Below, in pieces: positions 45,539-63,143 of a stretch of DNA of 64,000 nt. A program made the translations under genes and the position numbers. Below the pieces are notes generated by a model that saw only the letters and a program-made list of their open reading frames with translations, did not search any database and had not been told where the DNA came from. Where the stretch lies: the NCBI RefSeq assembly GCF_009834515.1, contig NZ_CP019426.1, positions 1,353,501-1,417,500 on the forward strand, read 5' to 3'. Source of the stretch: Pseudomonas sp. R84. Lineage in GTDB: Bacteria > Pseudomonadota > Gammaproteobacteria > Pseudomonadales > Pseudomonadaceae. Numbering within the stretch: the first letter of the stretch is position 1; each line of letters opens with the position of its first letter.

Positions 45539-48121
45539 TTATATCCGGTTCTTCAGTGCATAGAGCATTTCGAGCGCACGACGCGGGGTCAGGTCATCCA
45601 GATCCAGTTTAGCCAGCTCATCAAGCACGGGGTGCGGCAGGCTGGCGAACATGTCGCTTTGTTGTGGCGTCGCCGGTTTGTCCTTGGCGGCGGGTTTCGG
45701 CGCTTCATGCGGCAAAGCGGTTTCTTCCAGTCGGCTCAGGTGCTCGCGGGCACGCACGATCACTTCGCTCGGCACACCGGCCAGTTGCGCTACTGCCAGA
45801 CCGTAACTCTGACTGGCAGGGCCGGGCAGCACGTGGTGCAGGAACACGATGCGTTCGTTGTGCTCGGTGGCGTTGAGGTGGACGTTGGCCACCAGTGGCT
45901 CAGCTTCCGGCAACACGGTCAGTTCGAAGTAGTGCGTAGCGAACAGCGTATAGGCGCGCAAATGAGCCAGGCGCTCGGCTGCAGCCCAGGCCAGCGACAG
46001 GCCGTCAAAAGTGCTGGTGCCGCGACCGACTTCGTCCATCAGCACCAGGCTGCGCTCGGTGGCGTTGTGCAGGATGTTGGCGGTTTCGCTCATTTCGACC
46101 ATGAAGGTCGAACGGCCACCCGCGAGGTCATCGCTGGAGCCGATACGGGTGAAGATGCGGTCGACCAGCGACAGTTCGCAACTGGCTGCCGGTACGAAGC
46201 TGCCGATATGCGCCAGCAGCACGATCAGTGCGGTTTGGCGCATGTAGGTGGATTTACCGCCCATGTTCGGGCCGGTGATCACCAGCATGCGCGTGTTGTC
46301 ATCGAGGCTCAGGTCGTTGGCCACGAACGGCGTGGTCAGCACTTGCTCGACCACCGGGTGACGACCCTGGGAGATGCGCATGCACGGCTCGCTGACGAAG
46401 CGCGGGCAGTTCAGGTCGAGGTTCAGCGCACGCTCGGCAAGGTTGCTCAACACGTCGAGTTCGGCCAGCGCACCGGCGGTGTCCTGCAGCGGTGGCAACT
46501 GGCTGATCAGGTCCTCCAGCAGCGCTTCGTACAGCATCTTCTCGCGGGCGAGGGCGCGGCTCTTGGCCGACAGCGCCTTGTCTTCGAATTCTTTCAGCTC
46601 AGGCGTTATGAAGCGTTCGGCACCTTTCAGCGTCTGGCGACGGATGTAATCCGCCGGGGCGGATTCGGCCTGCTTGCTCGGCAGTTCGATGAAGTAGCCG
46701 TGAATGCGGTTGTAGCCGACTTTCAGATGGCTCAGGCCGGTGCGGGCTTTCTCGCGGGCTTCGAGATCGATGAGGAACTGACCGGCGTTTTCGCTCAGCG
46801 ATTGCAGTTCATCGAGTTCGCTGTCGTAACCGGTTTTCAACACGCCGCCGTCACGGATTACCGCCGGCGGGTTATCGATGATGGCTTTCTCCAGCAGCGC
46901 CGCCAGTTCCGGGTAAGTGCTGGTGGTGGTCGCCAGACCTTGCAGGTGCGGCGCTTCCAGATCGGTCATCGCCACTTGCAGTTCAGGCAGTGCGCCAAGG
47001 GCGTCGCGCAGCCGGGCAAGGTCACGAGGACGCGCGTTGCGCAGGCCGATTCGCGCGAGAATTCGCTCGATGTCGCCGATTTCCTTGAGCTGTGGTTGCA
47101 GCTTTTCGAAACGGTAGCGATCAAGCAGGCAAGTGATCGAGGTCTGGCGCGCCAGCAATACCGTCAGATCGCGCAACGGGCGATTCAACCAACGGGTCAG
47201 CAAGCGGCTGCCCATGGCGGTCTGGCAGCGATCGACCACCGATTGCAGGGTATTGTCGCGGCCACCGGCGAGGTTGGTGTCGAGTTCAAGATTGCGGCGG
47301 CTCGCACCGTCCAGCACCACGGTGTCATCCAGGCGTTCGTGGCGCAGGCTGCGCAGATGGGGCAGGGCGGTGCGCTGGGTTTCCTTGGCGTAGGCCAACA
47401 GGCAACCGGCAGCGCCGATGGCCAGGGTCAGGTTCTCGCAGCCAAAGCCCTTCAGGTCTTGGGTGGAGAACTGCTGGCAAAGGCTTTTCAGTGCTGAGTC
47501 ACGCTCGAAATCCCACGGCGCACGACGACTGACGCCACGGCGTTTTTCCGCTGGCAGGTCCCTCGGCCAGTCATCCGGGATCAGCAACTCAACCGGATTG
47601 ATCCGCTCCAGTTCCGCGAGCAGGTTCTCCCAGCCTTTGATTTCCGACACGCTGAAACTGCCGCTGGTGATGTCCAGCACGGCCAGACCGAACAGGCGCT
47701 CGTCACCCAGCAGGGCGGCAATCAGGTTGTCGCGGCGCTCATCGAGCAGCGCCTCATCACTGACCGTCCCAGGGGTGAGGATGCGCACTACCTGACGTTC
47801 CACCGGGCCTTTGCTGGTTGCCGGGTCGCCGACCTGCTCGCAGATCACCACCGACTCGCCAAGCTTCACCAGCTTCGCCAGATAGCCTTCAGCCGCGTGG
47901 TAAGGAATGCCACACATCGGAATCGCCTGCCCCGCCGACTGCCCGCGCGCGGTCAGCGTGATGTCGAGCAACTTGGCCGCCTTCTTCGCGTCTTCGTAGA
48001 AGATCTCGTAGAAGTCGCCCATGCGGTAGAACATCAGCTGATCCGGGTGCTGATTCTTCAGGCGCCAGTACTGCTGCATCATCGGAGTGTGGGAGGACAG
48101 GTCGGAGACGGCTTTATTCAT
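45539..48121 (-). CDS. mutS: DNA mismatch repair protein MutS
   Basis: Recognises mismatches and recruits MutL. The 860-residue product has the N-terminal mismatch-binding domain with [15 protein letters not shown] (F-x-E motif: FYEIF), the connector, core and clamp domains. The ATPase has [18 protein letters not shown] (Walker A) and [20 protein letters not shown] (Walker B and signature). The ATG at 48119-48121 is preferred; a TTG 15 bp upstream is possible and neither has a clear ribosome site. It marks the left border of the tailocin locus. Confidence 0.97.
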
Positions 48122-48261
48122 CGGATTGTCAGGCAACTCGTTAAAAGATGTAGGGCAAAAGCGGGGGCATCAGCCAGGCTTTCGCGCGATGGGCGCAAGG
48201 TTACCATGGGCGGTCTGCCGGACGCAGGCATCGCAGCCGGGTGACGGTTTTCTTCACCGAA

Positions 48262-48300
48262 AGGTGTATTTATGCACGATTTATGCAAATCAGCATTTGT
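48262..48300 (+). promoter_or_regulatory. Putative autoregulatory operator of the tailocin repressor
   Basis: Direct copies of TTATGCA (in ATTTATGCACGATTTATGCA) and the inverted CAAAT-CAGC-ATTTG lie 25-60 bp before the repressor start. Similar ATGCAT half-sites occur in the downstream tailocin promoter, so the repressor probably binds both. Confidence 0.5.
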
Positions 48301-48323
48301 CTTCATTAAAAACTTCAAGCACT

Positions 48324-49067
48324 ATGCGCGTTATGCAAAAACGCAACGTAGCCTCCGTCTTAAGAGCACTGCTCGACCAGCACGGGATCTCCCCCACGGA
48401 GCTCCACCGTCGCACCGGCGTGCCTCAATCCACTCTCTCGCGGATCCTCAGCGGGAAGATCGTCGATCCCTCGGATAAACACATCTCGAAGATCGCCGAG
48501 TACTTCGCCGTGAGCACCGATCAATTGCGCGGGCGCGCAGATGTCGCGCCGTCGGCCGGAGCCGCGCGTGATGACGTACACGCGGAACTCAAGGACATAA
48601 TGCTGTGGGACGACGATACGCCGGTCGATGATGACGAAGTATCGGTGCCGTTCCTTCGCGAGGTTGAATTGGCAGCAGGATCAGGAAGATTCGTCATCGA
48701 AGAGAGCGAGCGCTCTAGCCTGCGCTTCGGCAAGCGTAGCCTGCGCCATAACGGCGTGCAGTTCGATCAGGCCAAATGCGTGACAGTGCGCGGCAACAGT
48801 ATGCTACCGGTGTTGCGTGATGGCGCCACCGTTGGTGTGAATGCGGGCAAGTGCGGGATCGGCGACATCATTGATGGCGACCTGTACGCGATCAATCACA
48901 ACGGCCAGTTGCGCGTGAAGCAACTCTATCGCCTGCCGACCGGCATTCGTCTGCGCAGCTTCAATCGCGATGAGCATCCGGACGAAGACTACAGCTTCCA
49001 GGAAATCCAGGAAGAGCAGATCGTCATCCTCGGTCACGTCTTCTGGTGGGGCATGTACGCCCGCTAA
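48324..49067 (+). CDS. prtR: PrtR/LexA-type self-cleaving repressor of the tailocin
   Basis: Predicted to keep the tailocin genes off until DNA damage triggers RecA-assisted self-cleavage. The 247-residue product has an XRE helix-turn-helix (about 20-50, TELHRRTGVPQSTLSRIL) and a C-terminal S24 peptidase domain. That domain has Ser159 in RGNSMLPVLRDG, Lys199 in QLRVKQLYR and a probable Ala118-Gly119 cleavage site in ELAAGSGRF. An ATG at 48333 (MQKRNVAS) is an alternative start. A terminator follows. No PrtN-like activator is seen next to it, unlike P. aeruginosa, so direct repression of the promoter at 49198 is likely. Confidence 0.85.
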   Translation: MRVMQKRNVASVLRALLDQHGISPTELHRRTGVPQSTLSRILSGKIVDPSDKHISKIAEYFAVSTDQLRGRADVAPSAGAARDDVHAELKDIMLWDDDTPVDDDEVSVPFLREVELAAGSGRFVIEESERSSLRFGKRSLRHNGVQFDQAKCVTVRGNSMLPVLRDGATVGVNAGKCGIGDIIDGDLYAINHNGQLRVKQLYRLPTGIRLRSFNRDEHPDEDYSFQEIQEEQIVILGHVFWWGMYAR

Positions 49068-58204: not shown

Positions 58205-59371
58205 ATGGCTGAGGTTCTGAACTTCGAGCACAACGGCATTACCGTCAATGCCACCGAATCCCCCGAGGCCATGGGTGGCCTGGGTGACAACGTCATCGGC
58301 CTGGTCGGCACCGCGCCGAAAGCCGATCCGCTGATTCCGCGTAACGCACCGTTCCGCATCAACAGTTTCACCACCCACGCGCTGCTCGATCCGACCGGTT
58401 CGGAAGAGGGCACCCTGTACCACGCGGTTTACCAGATCCTCAAAGTGGTCAAGGTGCCGGTTTACGTGGTCATCGTCGAGGCGGGTGCGACCCCGGCCGA
58501 CACCGTCAACAACGTGATCGGCGGCGTCGATCCACTGACCGGCCGCAAGCTCGGTCTGGCCGCGCTGGGCAGTGTCCCGGAAGACCTGACCATCATCGGC
58601 GCGCCGGGCTTCACCGGCACCAAAGCTGTGGCCAGCGAGTTCGCCTCGTTCGGCAAGCGCATCAAGGCCCGTGTGGTGCTGGATGGCAAGGACGCCTCGG
58701 TTGCCGATCAAGTGTTGTACAGCCAGGAACTCGGCGGCGCCGACCTCGGTTTCGACCGTTGCCTGGTGGTGCACAACATGCCGGCCGTGTACTCGAAAGC
58801 GGCGAAGAAAAACGTCTTCCTGTCGCCTTCCAGCCTGGCGATTGCCGCACTGGCCAAGGTCAAGCAGTGGGAGAGCCCGGGCAACCAGGTGACCTACGCC
58901 GAAGACGTTTCGCGGGTCGTTGAGTACAACATTCTCGACACCTCCACCGAAGGCGATCTGCTCAACCGCTACGGCGTCAGCTACTACGCCCGCACCGTGC
59001 TCGGCGGCTTCTCGCTGCTGGGCAACCGCTCGATCACCGGCAAGTTCATCAGCTACGTCGGCCTCGAAGATGCGATCAGCCGCAAGCTGGTCAAGGCCGG
59101 CCAGAAAGCCATGGCCAAGAACCTCACCAAGTCCTTCATGGATCAAGAGGTCAAGCGCATCAACGACTGGCTGCAAACCCTGGTCGCCGACGAAACCATC
59201 CCTGGCGGCAGCGTGTATCTGCACCCGGAACTGAACAGCGTCGAGAAGTACAAGAACGGCACCTGGTATGTGGTCATCGACTACGGCCGCTACGCGCCAA
59301 ACGAACACATGGTTTATCAACTCAACGCCCGCGATGAAATCATCGAGCAGTTCCTGGAGGACGTTCTCTAA
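58205..59371 (+). CDS. Tail sheath protein (FI)
   Basis: The contractile sheath subunit. The 388-residue product has the N-terminal arm VTAT-like NGITVNATESPEA, a GLVGTAPKADP motif typical of gpFI-type sheaths, and a conserved C-terminal domain with ISYVGLEDAISRKLVKAGQK and YELNA-like YQLNARDEIIEQFLEDVL. It shares one base with the tube gene. Confidence 0.95.
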   Translation: MAEVLNFEHNGITVNATESPEAMGGLGDNVIGLVGTAPKADPLIPRNAPFRINSFTTHALLDPTGSEEGTLYHAVYQILKVVKVPVYVVIVEAGATPADTVNNVIGGVDPLTGRKLGLAALGSVPEDLTIIGAPGFTGTKAVASEFASFGKRIKARVVLDGKDASVADQVLYSQELGGADLGFDRCLVVHNMPAVYSKAAKKNVFLSPSSLAIAALAKVKQWESPGNQVTYAEDVSRVVEYNILDTSTEGDLLNRYGVSYYARTVLGGFSLLGNRSITGKFISYVGLEDAISRKLVKAGQKAMAKNLTKSFMDQEVKRINDWLQTLVADETIPGGSVYLHPELNSVEKYKNGTWYVVIDYGRYAPNEHMVYQLNARDEIIEQFLEDVL

Positions 59372-59877
59372 TGTTTACCAACCGCGTAAGACAGGCCATC
59401 GCGGCCACCCTCCAAGGCCTGCCGTTGTCGGCGACTGTTGAAGAATTCACCCCGCCGAAAATTGATTTCGACATGGAAAGCATGACGGGCGGGCGTTTCA
59501 TCGTCGAGGAGATGGCCAAGAGTGCAAAGCCGCTCAATGCGCAGATCAAATTGCAAGGCACCGGTGCTGAAGTGTTGCTGGCGATGGGCGTGAAACTGGG
59601 CGACGACATCCTGCTGAACGTGCGTGAAGCCGGTCAGGATCAGGACGGCAATACCTGGTTCACCTACCACACCATCGGCGGCAAGCTCAAAACCATGGGC
59701 GAAGACGCAATCAAAATGGGCGGCAAGGCTCTGACGACGCTGGACTTCTCCTGCCGCACCTACAACCGCCTGGAAAACGGCATTCCGGTGATCGACATCG
59801 ACGTGCGTACCCAGAAGTTCGTCCTCAACGGCGTCGACATCCTCGGTGATGCGCGTCGTGCGGTGCTGATGCCGTAA
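59371..59877 (+). CDS. Tail tube protein (FII)
   Basis: The inner tube subunit. The 168-residue product has EFTPPKIDFDMESMTGGRF near residue 25, a VLLAMGVKLGDDILLNVREA stretch and the YNRLENGIPVIDIDVRTQKF C-terminal motif of P2 gpFII. It is overlapped by 1 bp with the sheath gene and made in a similar amount. Confidence 0.95.
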   Translation: MFTNRVRQAIAATLQGLPLSATVEEFTPPKIDFDMESMTGGRFIVEEMAKSAKPLNAQIKLQGTGAEVLLAMGVKLGDDILLNVREAGQDQDGNTWFTYHTIGGKLKTMGEDAIKMGGKALTTLDFSCRTYNRLENGIPVIDIDVRTQKFVLNGVDILGDARRAVLMP

Positions 59878-59896
59878 CCCGTTACACCGCAAAACC

Positions 59897-59985
59897 TGTG
59901 AGAGCGAGCCTGCTCGCGAAGCCTTTGGCACATTCAACATCAATGTGACTGAACGACCGCTTTCGCGAGCAGGCTCACTCCCACA
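59897..59985. repeat. REPIN inside the tailocin operon
   Basis: Inverted arms starting TGTGAGAGCGAGCCTGCTCG lie in the 168 bp gap between tube and tail-assembly genes. The left arm has a GAGAG variant and the right arm reads GGCTCACTCCCACA. A stable hairpin here may change relative amounts of tube and downstream proteins. Confidence 0.9.
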
Positions 59986-60045
59986 GTGGGCCAGTGTGAC
60001 TGGCAGAAATTGAGTAACCCCCAAGAATCACCAAGGAATTCATAC

Positions 60046-60627
60046 ATGTCGTGGATGCCACCCCAGCATGACCTGCTGTCGCCGATCACCGGCGACGATG
60101 GTTCGCAGATCAACCAGATCCAGCTCAAGCCACTGTTCTACGCCGCACAGAAAGAAGCGCTGGAACGCGCCGGCGATGACGAAGACGATCAGTTCTTCGA
60201 GCTGGCGCTGCTCGCCACTGGCCTGTCGGTCAAAGAACTCGACCAGCTCAAGCGCCCGGACTACGTGAGCATCGCCCAGTACGTGCACGAGATGTCGACA
60301 CGCCCTGCGTCGTACTTTCTCGACCAGGTCGAAGACGCGCAAAAGTCCGACGATCCCGATCAGGTGCAACTGCTGCAACCGCTCGCCGTAACCGGCCGCA
60401 CCGTGACCTCGCTGAGCCTGGAAATGCCTGTGCTGCGCGCCACCAAAGTGATGAAGAAACTGAAAACGGCCAAGGAACGCGCCGAGTTCATCACCGCCCA
60501 CTGCACCGGTCTGATGATCCCTGATCTGGCTCACTTGAGCGTCCCGGACTGGACGCAATTGCAGGTGCGTATCGACGATTTTTTAAACCAGCCGGCGGCC
60601 TACTTTCGGAACGCGACATCGAAGTAA
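60046..60627 (+). CDS. Tail assembly chaperone, P2 gpE-like, zero-frame product
   Basis: Helps load tape measure protein and tube subunits. The 193-residue zero-frame product starts MSWMPPQHDLLSPITGDDGS and contains RATKVMKKLKTAKERAEFIT. AAGGAATTCATAC precedes the ATG. Near its 3' end a T TTT TTA slippery heptamer is followed by a -1 frame that stays open for 54 codons (next entry), the gene structure used for the gpE/gpE+E' pair of P2-like tails. Confidence 0.88.
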   Translation: MSWMPPQHDLLSPITGDDGSQINQIQLKPLFYAAQKEALERAGDDEDDQFFELALLATGLSVKELDQLKRPDYVSIAQYVHEMSTRPASYFLDQVEDAQKSDDPDQVQLLQPLAVTGRTVTSLSLEMPVLRATKVMKKLKTAKERAEFITAHCTGLMIPDLAHLSVPDWTQLQVRIDDFLNQPAAYFRNATSK

Positions 60628-60749
60628 TCCTCGATATCGTCCCGCTCATTTACCCGGTAAGTGAAGCGGAGATTCTGGAATGGGACGCCGAAAAGGCGTT
60701 GCGCCGCTACGACATAGCGATCACTCGCCTTGGCGTGAAACAGGAGTAG
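60585..60749 (+). CDS. -1 frame extension (E'), translated as frameshift fusion
   Basis: The slippery heptamer TTTTTTA lies at 60579-60585. In the -1 frame the next codons read KPAGGLLSERDIEVILDIVP and end VKQE at TAG 60747-60749, a 54-codon extension with coding-like composition and no own start. The fusion would be about 234 residues. It ends 6 bp before the tape measure ATG, and the gap would otherwise be empty. The frameshift itself is inferred. Confidence 0.75.
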   Translation, partial: KPAGGLLSERDIEVILDIVPLIYPVSEAEILEWDAEKALRRYDIAITRLGVKQE

Positions 60750-60755
60750 AGCGGC

Positions 60756-63143
60756 ATGGCAGAAACAAGGTATTCGCCAATGCTGGCCAGCGCGAACAGC
60801 AGCGTCGGGTTCAGCAACGCTGGCTTGGCAGTTGAGAAGTCCGCATTTGACGTTATTGCCAATCCACTGGCGGAGTTGAAGCTCGCGGTCGTGACCGCCA
60901 GTCAGGACATCCGGTTATTGATCAAGGAGCAGATCAAGCTTCGGGAAGTCATGGTCGCGCTGCAATCGCTGTCGAAGGCCAGTTCGCCAACGTCGGCGCC
61001 AGTAAGTGCGCCGAAGTCGAAACTCACGACCGAGATCGAACAGCGTCAGCCTCCCGCGTTTCTGCAGTCGACCATGGCGCTTCAAACGGCCATGGCCAGG
61101 CTAAAACAAGTGCCGGGCATGGACGGCGATCTCAAGAGCATGGAGATCGCCAACCTGGCAATGGCCGGTGAAAAAACGGTGGCAGGCAGTGGTGCGACCG
61201 CGGTTAGCCTGGCCGAGGTCGAATATGCCGCGGGCAAATCCGGGGTAGGCGCCAATCTCACTGGCGACACAAAGGAACAGGAACTGCTGGATTTCGGCCG
61301 TGATGCCGCCACGAACGCGACAGCGTTTGGCATTGAACTGAAGGCCGCTGGAGAAATGCTGACGGTCTGGAGAACCTCGCTCAAGCTTGATCGCGCGCAG
61401 GCTCAAAGCTTGGCCGACGCCAGTATTCATCTCGGGAAGAATTCGCTGAAAGCGACCGCAGCCGACATCGGCTCGGTGGTACAGAGTTCTGGCGAAACAG
61501 GAGTCGCGGCGGGTATTGCACCTGAGCAACTGGCTGCTCTTGCGGCCGCTTTGCTCAACGCAGATGTGGACACGTCTGGCGCCGCTACATCGGTGAAAAG
61601 CATCAGCGCTGCGCTGGCCAAAGGTGCCAAAGGCTCGGTCGCCGAGCGTGCAGCCTGGGCAACACTTGGACTCCAGCCGGACAAGCTCAACGAGGATGTG
61701 CCGCAAACCGTTTTCAAGGCACTCGAGGCTCTTAAACAAAAGCCGGCGAGCCAACAATCGGCACTGATCAAGACGTTGTTCAACGGTGATGAAGGCGTCA
61801 GCAAACTGCTGGATAAACCCCAGGATGTCGACAAGACATTTGCGTTGCTGACCGCGAGAAAACCGCTCGATCCACAGACCGAGTTGCTGAAGAGGCTATC
61901 GACCGGCAGCGACGGTTTGCATCAATTGATGGCGGAACCTGCTGAAGCGACGTTCTCGCCGGTTCCCCTTCAGGGACCGACCCAAAGTACCGAGCCGCAA
62001 TACAAAGGTGCGGTGCAGAGATCAGCCGATCCGGCTGGCGGCAGTCCTCAGCAAAGCTGGAACGCTTACGACGCCAGTAGAAACCGTTTGGCGACAGCGG
62101 TCGCTCCGGATGCGCAAACGCTGGACTCCCTCACCAATACATTGAACTGGGCGGCGGAGAAGGCCGAGGCAAACCCGAAAGTCGCTACGTCTCTGACTAT
62201 TGCGGCGGCGGGGCTTACGGCGTTTGTGGGGGCGTTGCTGGCAAAGGCCGCTGATAATTTCGTTGGCAAGCTTGTGAAGGGCATCGCAACGAAACTGCCG
62301 AAGGGACTTGGCAAATGGATTGCGGATATCGATGTTGCCGGCGATAGCGGTAAGCCCGTTGAAAACTCGCCATTTGATGAGCCAAACCCAAAAAAGCCTA
62401 CCCAGAGAAAGGGTGGAGGCCTGAAACCACGCAGGGTGAGCCTCGGTTCTTTGACCCAGCGAAAGAGCCATCAACCACTGATTGGTTCCGGCAGCTCTGC
62501 AGCTCGCAATCCTCTCATTCGTCAGCCCTCAGCGTGGCCCGCAAGCATGACGGCATTCTCCGGCTCATCGGGCGCCAGCCCAATGCACGCCGCGCCGCTG
62601 TCCGACTCCTACGCCAAGGCCGGCGCGCTGCTGGCCAAAAAAGCGCCGCCGCTGCGCCTGCTCAGCGCAGGATATGAACTGGTCAATGGTGTGATGCACG
62701 GGGACACGCGTTCAGTGGTGTCATCCGGTGCTTCGTTGGCCGGGTCTTCAGCGGGCGCCGCTGTCGGTGCCGCGCTTGGCACGCTGATTCTGCCTGGCGT
62801 GGGTACTGCAATTGGCGGGTGGCTCGGAAGCATGGCGGGGGGAGCCATCGGTGAGTCGCTGGGCGACAAGCTGGGGACCCAAGTCGATCGTCTTGACGCG
62901 CCAGCTCAGGTCAGCAAGGACCTGATCGCGACCTCGGCGACCTCCGCGATCCCGGCCACCACAGCCGCCAGCCAGCCTGTCACGTTCAACTCAACGATTC
63001 AGATCAATGGCCAGGATCTGGCCAGCGCCCAGGCGCTCGCCAATCTGGTGGTACAAACAACCATGGGGCAGTTGGGTCAAATCATGCCAACCAATCTCCT
63101 CGCCACCCGCCGTGACGCAGCCCTGACCGATGGAGTCGCCTGA
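60756..63143 (+). CDS. Tail tape measure protein
   Basis: Sets tail length and lines the tube. The 795-residue product is mostly alpha-helical and rich in Ala, Lys and Leu. It has a hydrophobic segment at about residues 475-497 (SLTIAAAGLTAFVGALLAK) and a glycine-rich hydrophobic stretch at about 655-705 (GASLAGSSAGAAVGAALG and GTAIGGWLGSMAGGAIGES), as in P2 gpT-type proteins. At about 3 bp per 1.5 angstrom of helix it would give a tail near 120 nm, in the R-pyocin range. It overlaps gene U by 1 bp. Confidence 0.9.
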   Translation: MAETRYSPMLASANSSVGFSNAGLAVEKSAFDVIANPLAELKLAVVTASQDIRLLIKEQIKLREVMVALQSLSKASSPTSAPVSAPKSKLTTEIEQRQPPAFLQSTMALQTAMARLKQVPGMDGDLKSMEIANLAMAGEKTVAGSGATAVSLAEVEYAAGKSGVGANLTGDTKEQELLDFGRDAATNATAFGIELKAAGEMLTVWRTSLKLDRAQAQSLADASIHLGKNSLKATAADIGSVVQSSGETGVAAGIAPEQLAALAAALLNADVDTSGAATSVKSISAALAKGAKGSVAERAAWATLGLQPDKLNEDVPQTVFKALEALKQKPASQQSALIKTLFNGDEGVSKLLDKPQDVDKTFALLTARKPLDPQTELLKRLSTGSDGLHQLMAEPAEATFSPVPLQGPTQSTEPQYKGAVQRSADPAGGSPQQSWNAYDASRNRLATAVAPDAQTLDSLTNTLNWAAEKAEANPKVATSLTIAAAGLTAFVGALLAKAADNFVGKLVKGIATKLPKGLGKWIADIDVAGDSGKPVENSPFDEPNPKKPTQRKGGGLKPRRVSLGSLTQRKSHQPLIGSGSSAARNPLIRQPSAWPASMTAFSGSSGASPMHAAPLSDSYAKAGALLAKKAPPLRLLSAGYELVNGVMHGDTRSVVSSGASLAGSSAGAAVGAALGTLILPGVGTAIGGWLGSMAGGAIGESLGDKLGTQVDRLDAPAQVSKDLIATSATSAIPATTAASQPVTFNSTIQINGQDLASAQALANLVVQTTMGQLGQIMPTNLLATRRDAALTDGVA

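What the first reader, a model, noticed from the sequence alone, without database searches (positions are those of the whole stretch)
60579..60749. Programmed -1 frameshift site in the tail assembly chaperone gene
TTTTTTA sits in the right register (T TTT TTA) about 40 bp before the zero-frame stop. The -1 frame then stays open for 54 codons with coding-like residues and ends 6 bp before the tape measure gene. This fits the conserved G/GT and E/E+E' frameshift of long-tailed phages, and would be missed by normal gene calling.
Basis: partly seen in the sequence, partly recalled or inferred. Interest (0 to 1): 0.75.

Follow-up and report, generated by a model that had tools for sequence, protein, structure and literature searches.

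The report
Frameshift site in tailocin chaperone gene
A gene that helps build a phage-tail-like weapon of a Pseudomonas very probably makes a second, longer protein by letting some ribosomes slip back one base, as phage P2 does; the slip site is kept in nearly every relative examined, so it is a solid new case of a known mechanism.

Summary
E (60046-60627, PF10109 tail assembly chaperone) carries T TTT TTA in register at 60579-60585, 39 nt before its stop; the -1 frame stays open for 54 codons to 60749, 6 bp before the tape-measure ATG. Alone this is weak (such a heptamer in 1.2% of codon shuffles, such an open frame in 13%), but conservation is decisive: T TTT TTN in 317 of 319 scored loci of tailocins and phages (the 2 misses are one place), and a -1 extension under purifying selection (dN/dS 0.16, no stops) with homologues in Halomonas, Vibrio and Aeromonas phages. 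It is the P2-type E/E+E' -1 frameshift, in the first of two tandem R-tailocins at the mutS-cinA/recA hotspot. No product was measured. New member of a known kind, with particular features that are directly testable.

The parts
58205..59371 (+). tail sheath gene
   Evidence: phrog_23 tail sheath 7.3e-71
59371..59877 (+). tail tube gene
   Evidence: PF04985 Phage_tube 4.2e-21
60046..60627 (+). E: tail assembly chaperone, zero frame, 193 aa, two tandem PF10109 domains
   Evidence: PF10109 58.7 bits, phrog_166 2.1e-53; the halves match PF10109 separately at 27.2 and 36.2 bits, cut-off 25, and each other (BLAST 6.5e-7, hhalign 7.7e-6)
60563..60567 (+). Shine-Dalgarno-like AGGTG, 11 nt 5' of the heptamer (candidate stimulator, function inferred)
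   Evidence: strongest of 290 positions for anti-SD pairing in 202 T6A loci, second in 55 T6G loci; rank 1 of 52 windows for excess over codon resampling in both sets
60579..60585 (+). slippery heptamer T TTT TTA
   Evidence: T TTT TTN in 317 of 319 loci; codons TTT TTA in 194 of 194 T6A sequences with a 54-residue extension
60582..60588 (+). second, overlapping in-register heptamer T TTA AAC
   Evidence: AAC or AAT follows TTA in all 202 distinct T6A loci; not formed in T6G relatives
60585..60749 (+). E' extension in the -1 frame, 54 codons plus TAG
   Evidence: phrog_18887 2.5e-28; dN/dS 0.16, no stops in 600 pairs; homologues in 16 phage records
60756..63143 (+). tape measure gene
   Evidence: PF10145 1.5e-17, phrog_794 3.1e-54

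Best explanation
[quoted passage not shown] Most ribosomes make E (193 aa). A minority slip back one base while TTT and TTA (or TTA and AAC) are in the P and A sites and make E+E' (234 aa). By analogy with lambda G/GT and P2 E/E+E', E and E+E' coat the tape measure and the E' part recruits the tube protein, so that the tube grows to the length set by the tape measure. Shown here: site, register, conservation, coding nature and homology of the -1 extension, gene order. Inferred: that slippage happens, its rate, which heptamer is used, that the SD-like element stimulates it, and the chaperone role.
For: Register and coordinates. Chaperone family for E, between tube and tape measure. Of 355 loci examined, 320 hold an E' homologue and 319 could be scored: T TTT TTA 250, T TTT TTG 64, T TTT TTT 3, other 2; distinct sequences 202/55/3/1 of 261. 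Phe codons upstream are TTT in 42 of 288 but 261 of 261 at the slip P codon; Leu is TTA in 25 of 2161 upstream but the slip A codon is TTA in 203 of 261. The Asp codon that must end in T for the heptamer is GAT in 192 of 192, the Asp before it GAC in 189 of 194. E' beyond the E stop: dN/dS 0.16 and no stop pairs in the -1 frame, stops in both other frames. Phages whose E is 23-37% identical keep heptamer and extension. The -1 frame of the window is open only 20 codons upstream and holds no ATG, GTG or TTG there or in its first 15 codons. The P2 record annotates the same arrangement as a -1 frameshift, at TTTTTTG.
Against: No protein, reporter or ribosome-profiling data. No downstream RNA structure beyond shuffles in the window (z -0.2, -1.3, -0.5 for three stretches 3' of the site and 0.2 for one spanning it), though P2 is reported to lack one too (PMC3091744, passages). 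E' resembles P2 E' only weakly (hhalign 59%, E 9e-5). 14 of 14 distant chaperones of other Pseudomonas elements (27-32% identity) have no in-register X XXY YYZ in the last 150 nt, and 1 of 10 class-level chaperones has none, so a frameshift is not universal in the wider family. 2 of 319 scored loci, one place, have lost the site.
Confidence: 0.93

Rival explanations
1. The shift occurs mainly at the overlapping heptamer T TTA AAC rather than at T TTT TTA, giving DFLN-PAGG instead of DFLK-PAGG.
For: T TTA AAY is in register in all 202 distinct T6A loci; TTA is a rare Leu codon here (25 of 2161) yet is invariant in 194 T6A sequences, although T TTT TTG would keep the first heptamer.
Against: T6G relatives, Aeromonas and Vibrio phages and P2 have only T TTT TTN, so the first heptamer is the conserved one; Asn (AAC/AAT) also follows TTG in 40 of 55 distinct T6G loci, so the second heptamer may be a by-product. 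A to G would also change K to E in the fusion, so retention of A may be a protein effect.
Confidence: 0.12
2. RNA polymerase slips on the T run and a share of mRNAs carry one extra U, so that ribosomes reach the -1 frame without slipping.
For: A homopolymer run is present; transcriptional slippage is a known recoding route (title and passages of PMC5009743).
Against: The run is exactly 6 in 257 of 261 distinct loci, 7 in 3, and broken in 1; 6 is short for polymerase slippage (recalled) and the run does not grow. The register, the SD-like element and the rare TTA codon would have no role in it.
Confidence: 0.04
3. E' is a separate small gene with its own start, as phrog_18887 and one phage record treat it.
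For: A GTG at codon 14 of E' exists in 71 of 261 distinct loci; the record of Vibrio phage ST2-2pr lists a separate gene.
Against: That codon is GTA in the window and in 136 of 194 T6A sequences; the window's -1 frame has no start codon near its beginning; conserved residues (G4, L7, S8, D11) lie upstream of it.
Confidence: 0.01
4. Chance heptamer and a non-functional -1 frame.
For: Single-sequence chance is not tiny: 1.2% and 13%.
Against: Conservation and purifying selection.
Confidence: 0.005

Closest known systems
Phage P2 E/E+E' (-1 frameshift at TTTTTTG)
   Same: Same position between tube (FII) and tape measure (T), same Pfam family PF10109, same T6 heptamer class and register, extension reaching the tape-measure start
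   Different: E is a tandem duplicate of the P2 gpE domain (193 against 91 aa); wobble A instead of G, which forms a second heptamer; E' only weakly alike; SD-like element 11 nt upstream, in P2 an AGGTGG 4 nt upstream
Hapunavirus phages VP882 and phiHAP-1
   Same: E of similar length (195 and 224 aa) and homologous over 93-96% of the query, homologous E' (59-61% identity over 46 residues), T TTT TTG at the same place
   Different: Phages with terminase and capsid genes (VP882); T6G, no second heptamer; their first E half stays below the Pfam cut-off (22.5 and 17.6 bits)
Phage lambda G/GT
   Same: Principle: chaperone plus -1 extension next to the tape measure (PMC5009743, passages)
   Different: Other slippery sequence (GGGAAAG, recalled) and unrelated protein sequence (recalled); not tested here
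Pseudomonas R-tailocins at mutS-cinA/recA (P. protegens CHA0 tailocins #1 and #2)
   Same: Same insertion site and two R-tailocins, each with its own tape measure (PMC7815802, passages)
   Different: The word frameshift does not occur in the held main text of PMC7815802; its supplement was not seen

Membership tests
P2-type E/E+E' tail assembly chaperone frameshift | Gene lies between tube and tape measure | tested here: met
P2-type E/E+E' tail assembly chaperone frameshift | E belongs to PF10109 | tested here: met
   58.7 bits against cut-off 25
P2-type E/E+E' tail assembly chaperone frameshift | T6 heptamer in register X XXY YYZ near the end of E | tested here: met
P2-type E/E+E' tail assembly chaperone frameshift | Open -1 frame overlapping E and ending at the tape-measure start | tested here: met
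P2-type E/E+E' tail assembly chaperone frameshift | Heptamer and -1 frame conserved among relatives | tested here: met
   317 of 319 scored loci; not in 14 of 14 distant chaperones of another element
P2-type E/E+E' tail assembly chaperone frameshift | E' homologous to P2 E' | tested here: inconclusive
   hhalign probability 59%, E 9e-5
P2-type E/E+E' tail assembly chaperone frameshift | Fusion protein is made, at a low fixed ratio | not testable with these tools
   needs reporter or proteomics
P2-type E/E+E' tail assembly chaperone frameshift | Both products act in tail assembly and are absent from the particle | not testable with these tools
   needs genetics
R-tailocin (headless) | Lies in the known insertion hotspot with regulator, holin, baseplate, fibre, sheath, tube and tape measure | tested here: met
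   (mutS, cinA, recA recognised by me from their sequence)
R-tailocin (headless) | No packaging or capsid genes | tested here: inconclusive
   VP882-type terminase: 0 matches in the own genome, while it rings in 22 of 24 T6G virus records; other terminases and capsid genes not searched

The most novel reading that the evidence does not exclude
The tailocin lineage uses a composite recoding site: an SD-like stimulator 11 nt upstream plus two overlapping heptamers (T TTT TTA and T TTA AAY), fixed when the wobble base changed from G to A shortly before phage tails were turned into headless weapons, and this resets the E : E+E' ratio for an assembly pathway without heads.
Probability: 0.2. Interest if true: 0.55.

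Novelty: new member of a known kind. Interest (0 to 1): 0.36.

Why it matters
In 8 of the 9 annotated phage records read the extension is not annotated at all, so the E+E' subunit is likely to be missing from protein lists for this class of particle. A natural series (P2 single-domain E with T6G, Hapunavirus E with T6G, tailocins with T6A followed by AAY, the neighbour tailocin with T6C) makes the question of how slip-site strength is tuned to tail assembly directly testable with reporters.

Tried and rejected
Rejected: an independent start for E' (no start codon near its beginning in the window); chance. Transcriptional slippage as the main route is judged unlikely (run length 6 in 257 of 261) but not excluded. 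Downstream hairpin: none beyond shuffles in four folds of the window; of 8 loci folded (mononucleotide shuffles only) some stretches fold well (z -4.2 in L311, -3.7 in L174, -3.2 in L173, -2.2 in L193), not followed, and dual coding makes conservation there hard to read. T6A as a hallmark of domestication: a VP882-type terminase is in 22 of 24 T6G and 1 of 26 T6A records, but the tree needs only 3 changes for A and puts a T6A record with terminase (L311, with L341) as sister of the tailocin clade, so the association is mostly one event, probably before head loss; virus records may be fragments. These 50 records were the part, under the cap, of 70 that I had picked as long; 6 T6G and 14 T6A of the 70 were left out. 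SD-like element in 26 distant loci: beats all 9 control windows in only 8, so it is well supported only in Pseudomonas and near phage relatives; shared ancestry and the conserved L-Q-x-R residues weaken it. PDB by sequence: no match; by fold: nothing significant, HK97 chaperone 2ob9 at E 3.6; viral models: a tail assembly chaperone first, E 4.6e-6. Rfam: three microRNA matches below threshold to an inverted repeat, taken as chance.

Full report
What is there. The window ends inside a tail operon. Upstream lie mutS (45539-48136, minus strand) and a PrtR/LexA-like repressor (48087-49067; S24 peptidase plus helix-turn-helix), then a holin, baseplate genes, fibre, sheath, tube, E, tape measure and a gpU-like gene. 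The chromosome beyond the window holds a second sheath and chaperone, and then cinA and recA (mutS, cinA and recA recognised by me from their sequence, not by a family search). This fits the mutS-cinA/recA hotspot with two tandem R-tailocins, as described for P. protegens CHA0 (PMC7815802, passages). No tool named the window's genus; that it is Pseudomonas rests on its nearest named relatives.

The observation. E runs from ATG 60046 to TAA 60627. T TTT TTA lies at 60579-60585 in the frame of E. The -1 frame from 60585 reads 54 residues to TAG 60749; the tape measure starts at 60756. A second canonical heptamer, T TTA AAC, lies at 60582-60588 in the same register and leads into the same frame; the two products differ by one residue, K or N. 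On its own the find is modest: T TTT TTN in register in 244 of 20000 codon shuffles, any X XXY YYZ in 7456 of 20000, and a 54-codon frame open in 645 of 5000 shuffles.

Conservation. E was sought in 398 genomes of the genus (116 with a match) and in IMG/VR (80 of 299 kept); E' was sought in GTDB genomes (80 of 108 kept) and IMG/VR (80 of 407 kept). Of 16 phage records with E' I fetched 10. From the genus I took 30 loci automatically, 40 further close places by hand and 14 distant ones; other close places were not read. Of the 355 loci then held, 320 encode E' and 319 could be scored: T TTT TTA 250, T TTT TTG 64, T TTT TTT 3, and 2 (L110 and L190, one place in one genome) where the run is shortened and the frame of E is lost; intact copies exist elsewhere. 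The 35 loci without E' are one contig end (L045), one upstream fragment (L189), 14 distant chaperones (L175-L188) and 19 class-level hits. Without duplicates the count is 202/55/3/1 of 261.

Codon choice shows what is selected. Upstream in E, Phe is TTT in 42 of 288 and Leu is TTA in 25 of 2161; at the slip site the P codon is TTT in 261 of 261 and the A codon TTA in 203 of 261. In 194 T6A sequences with a 54-residue extension, TTT TTA never varies; the preceding Asp is GAT in 192 of 192 (2 sequences have another residue) while the Asp before it is GAC in 189 of 194. In 600 random pairs of these 194 sequences, the part of E' beyond the E stop has dN/dS 0.16 with no stop codons; the two other frames have 1763 and 795 codon pairs with stops. 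The -1 frame therefore codes for protein, and the window offers no start codon near its beginning.

Relatives. E is 23-37% identical to proteins of Halomonas phage phiHAP-1, Vibrio phage VP882 and several Aeromonas and Vibrio phages, E' 40-61%. The 9 annotated records fetched have T TTT TTG (6) or T TTT TTT (3) at the same place; the tenth, an unannotated faecal record (MT838535, E 77%, E' 87% identical), has T TTT TTA. None of the 9 joins the two frames. Phage P2 has TTTTTTG, a 91-aa E and an annotated -1 fusion. Of 19 class-level phrog_166 hits, 10 could be placed, and 9 of these have an in-register T TTT TTN with an open -1 frame of 49-61 codons. Against this, 14 of 14 distant chaperones of another Pseudomonas element have no in-register heptamer near the end.

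E is a tandem duplicate. The two halves match PF10109 separately (27.2 and 36.2 bits, cut-off 25) and each other (25% identity, 6.5e-7; hhalign 7.7e-6), and the model shows the order strand-strand-helices twice (mean pLDDT 76, 14 sequences, second half less sure). In VP882 the second half passes the cut-off (38.8) and the first does not (22.5); P2 E is a single unit.

SD-like element. AGGTG (60563-60567) lies 11 nt 5' of the heptamer, near the spacing of the dnaX stimulator (spacing recalled; the element is named in PMC3711429, passage). In 202 T6A loci this is the strongest anti-SD position of 290; in 55 T6G loci it is second to one position downstream. Against codons drawn at random for the same residues it ranks first of 52 windows in both sets. 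In 26 more distant loci it beats all 9 control windows in 8. Codon draws ignore relatedness, so this is a lead, not proof. No downstream hairpin stands out in the window, though a few relatives fold well.

Phage against tailocin. Of 50 long virus records, the VP882 terminase is in 22 of 24 with T6G and 1 of 26 with T6A; the window's genome has no match. The tree (138 rows, quick method, long branches meeting) needs 4 changes for the three heptamer states, 3 for A alone; a T6A record with terminase (L311), with L341, is sister to the tailocin clade. The base change thus probably came before loss of the head. Every one of 202 distinct T6A loci has AAC or AAT next.

Known or new. The mechanism is known: P2 (TTTTTTG) and P2-like phages (PMC3091744 and PMC3931495, passages), lambda G/GT and wide conservation in long-tailed phages (PMC5009743, passages). 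The primary papers (Christie 2002, Xu 2004) were seen only as references. For Pseudomonas R-tailocins I saw no description in searches (listings, and the passages cited); most subscription journals are not held. I therefore file it as a new member of a known kind, with a two-domain E, an overlapping heptamer and an SD-like element as its particular features.

Noticed in passing
L191 (G000:C1:1417401-1437400), window coordinate about 67840, beyond the window: The second tailocin next door has its own PF10109 chaperone (98 aa, single domain) with T TTT TTC in register and a 54-residue -1 extension that reaches the start of the next long ORF (662 aa, presumed tape measure, no Pfam match).
   Followed up: partly
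window 59896-59986: A REP-like inverted repeat (25-nt arms, 92% complementary, 41 nt apart) sits between the tube gene and E in the middle of the tail operon (the name REP is recalled).
   Followed up: no
L110 and L190 (one place in one genome): A copy in which the T run is shortened and E ends early while the E' frame is intact; sequencing error or decay not decided.
   Followed up: no
L175-L188: Distant chaperones of another Pseudomonas element have no in-register slippery heptamer in the last 150 nt in 14 of 14; the one read further (L178) looks internally repeated too. How they make an extended form, if at all, is unexplained.
   Followed up: partly
PHROG family phrog_18887 (window 60624-60746): A 41-residue family of unknown function that matches residues 14-54 of the -1 extension, as if it began at a GTG that is not conserved.
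   Followed up: yes
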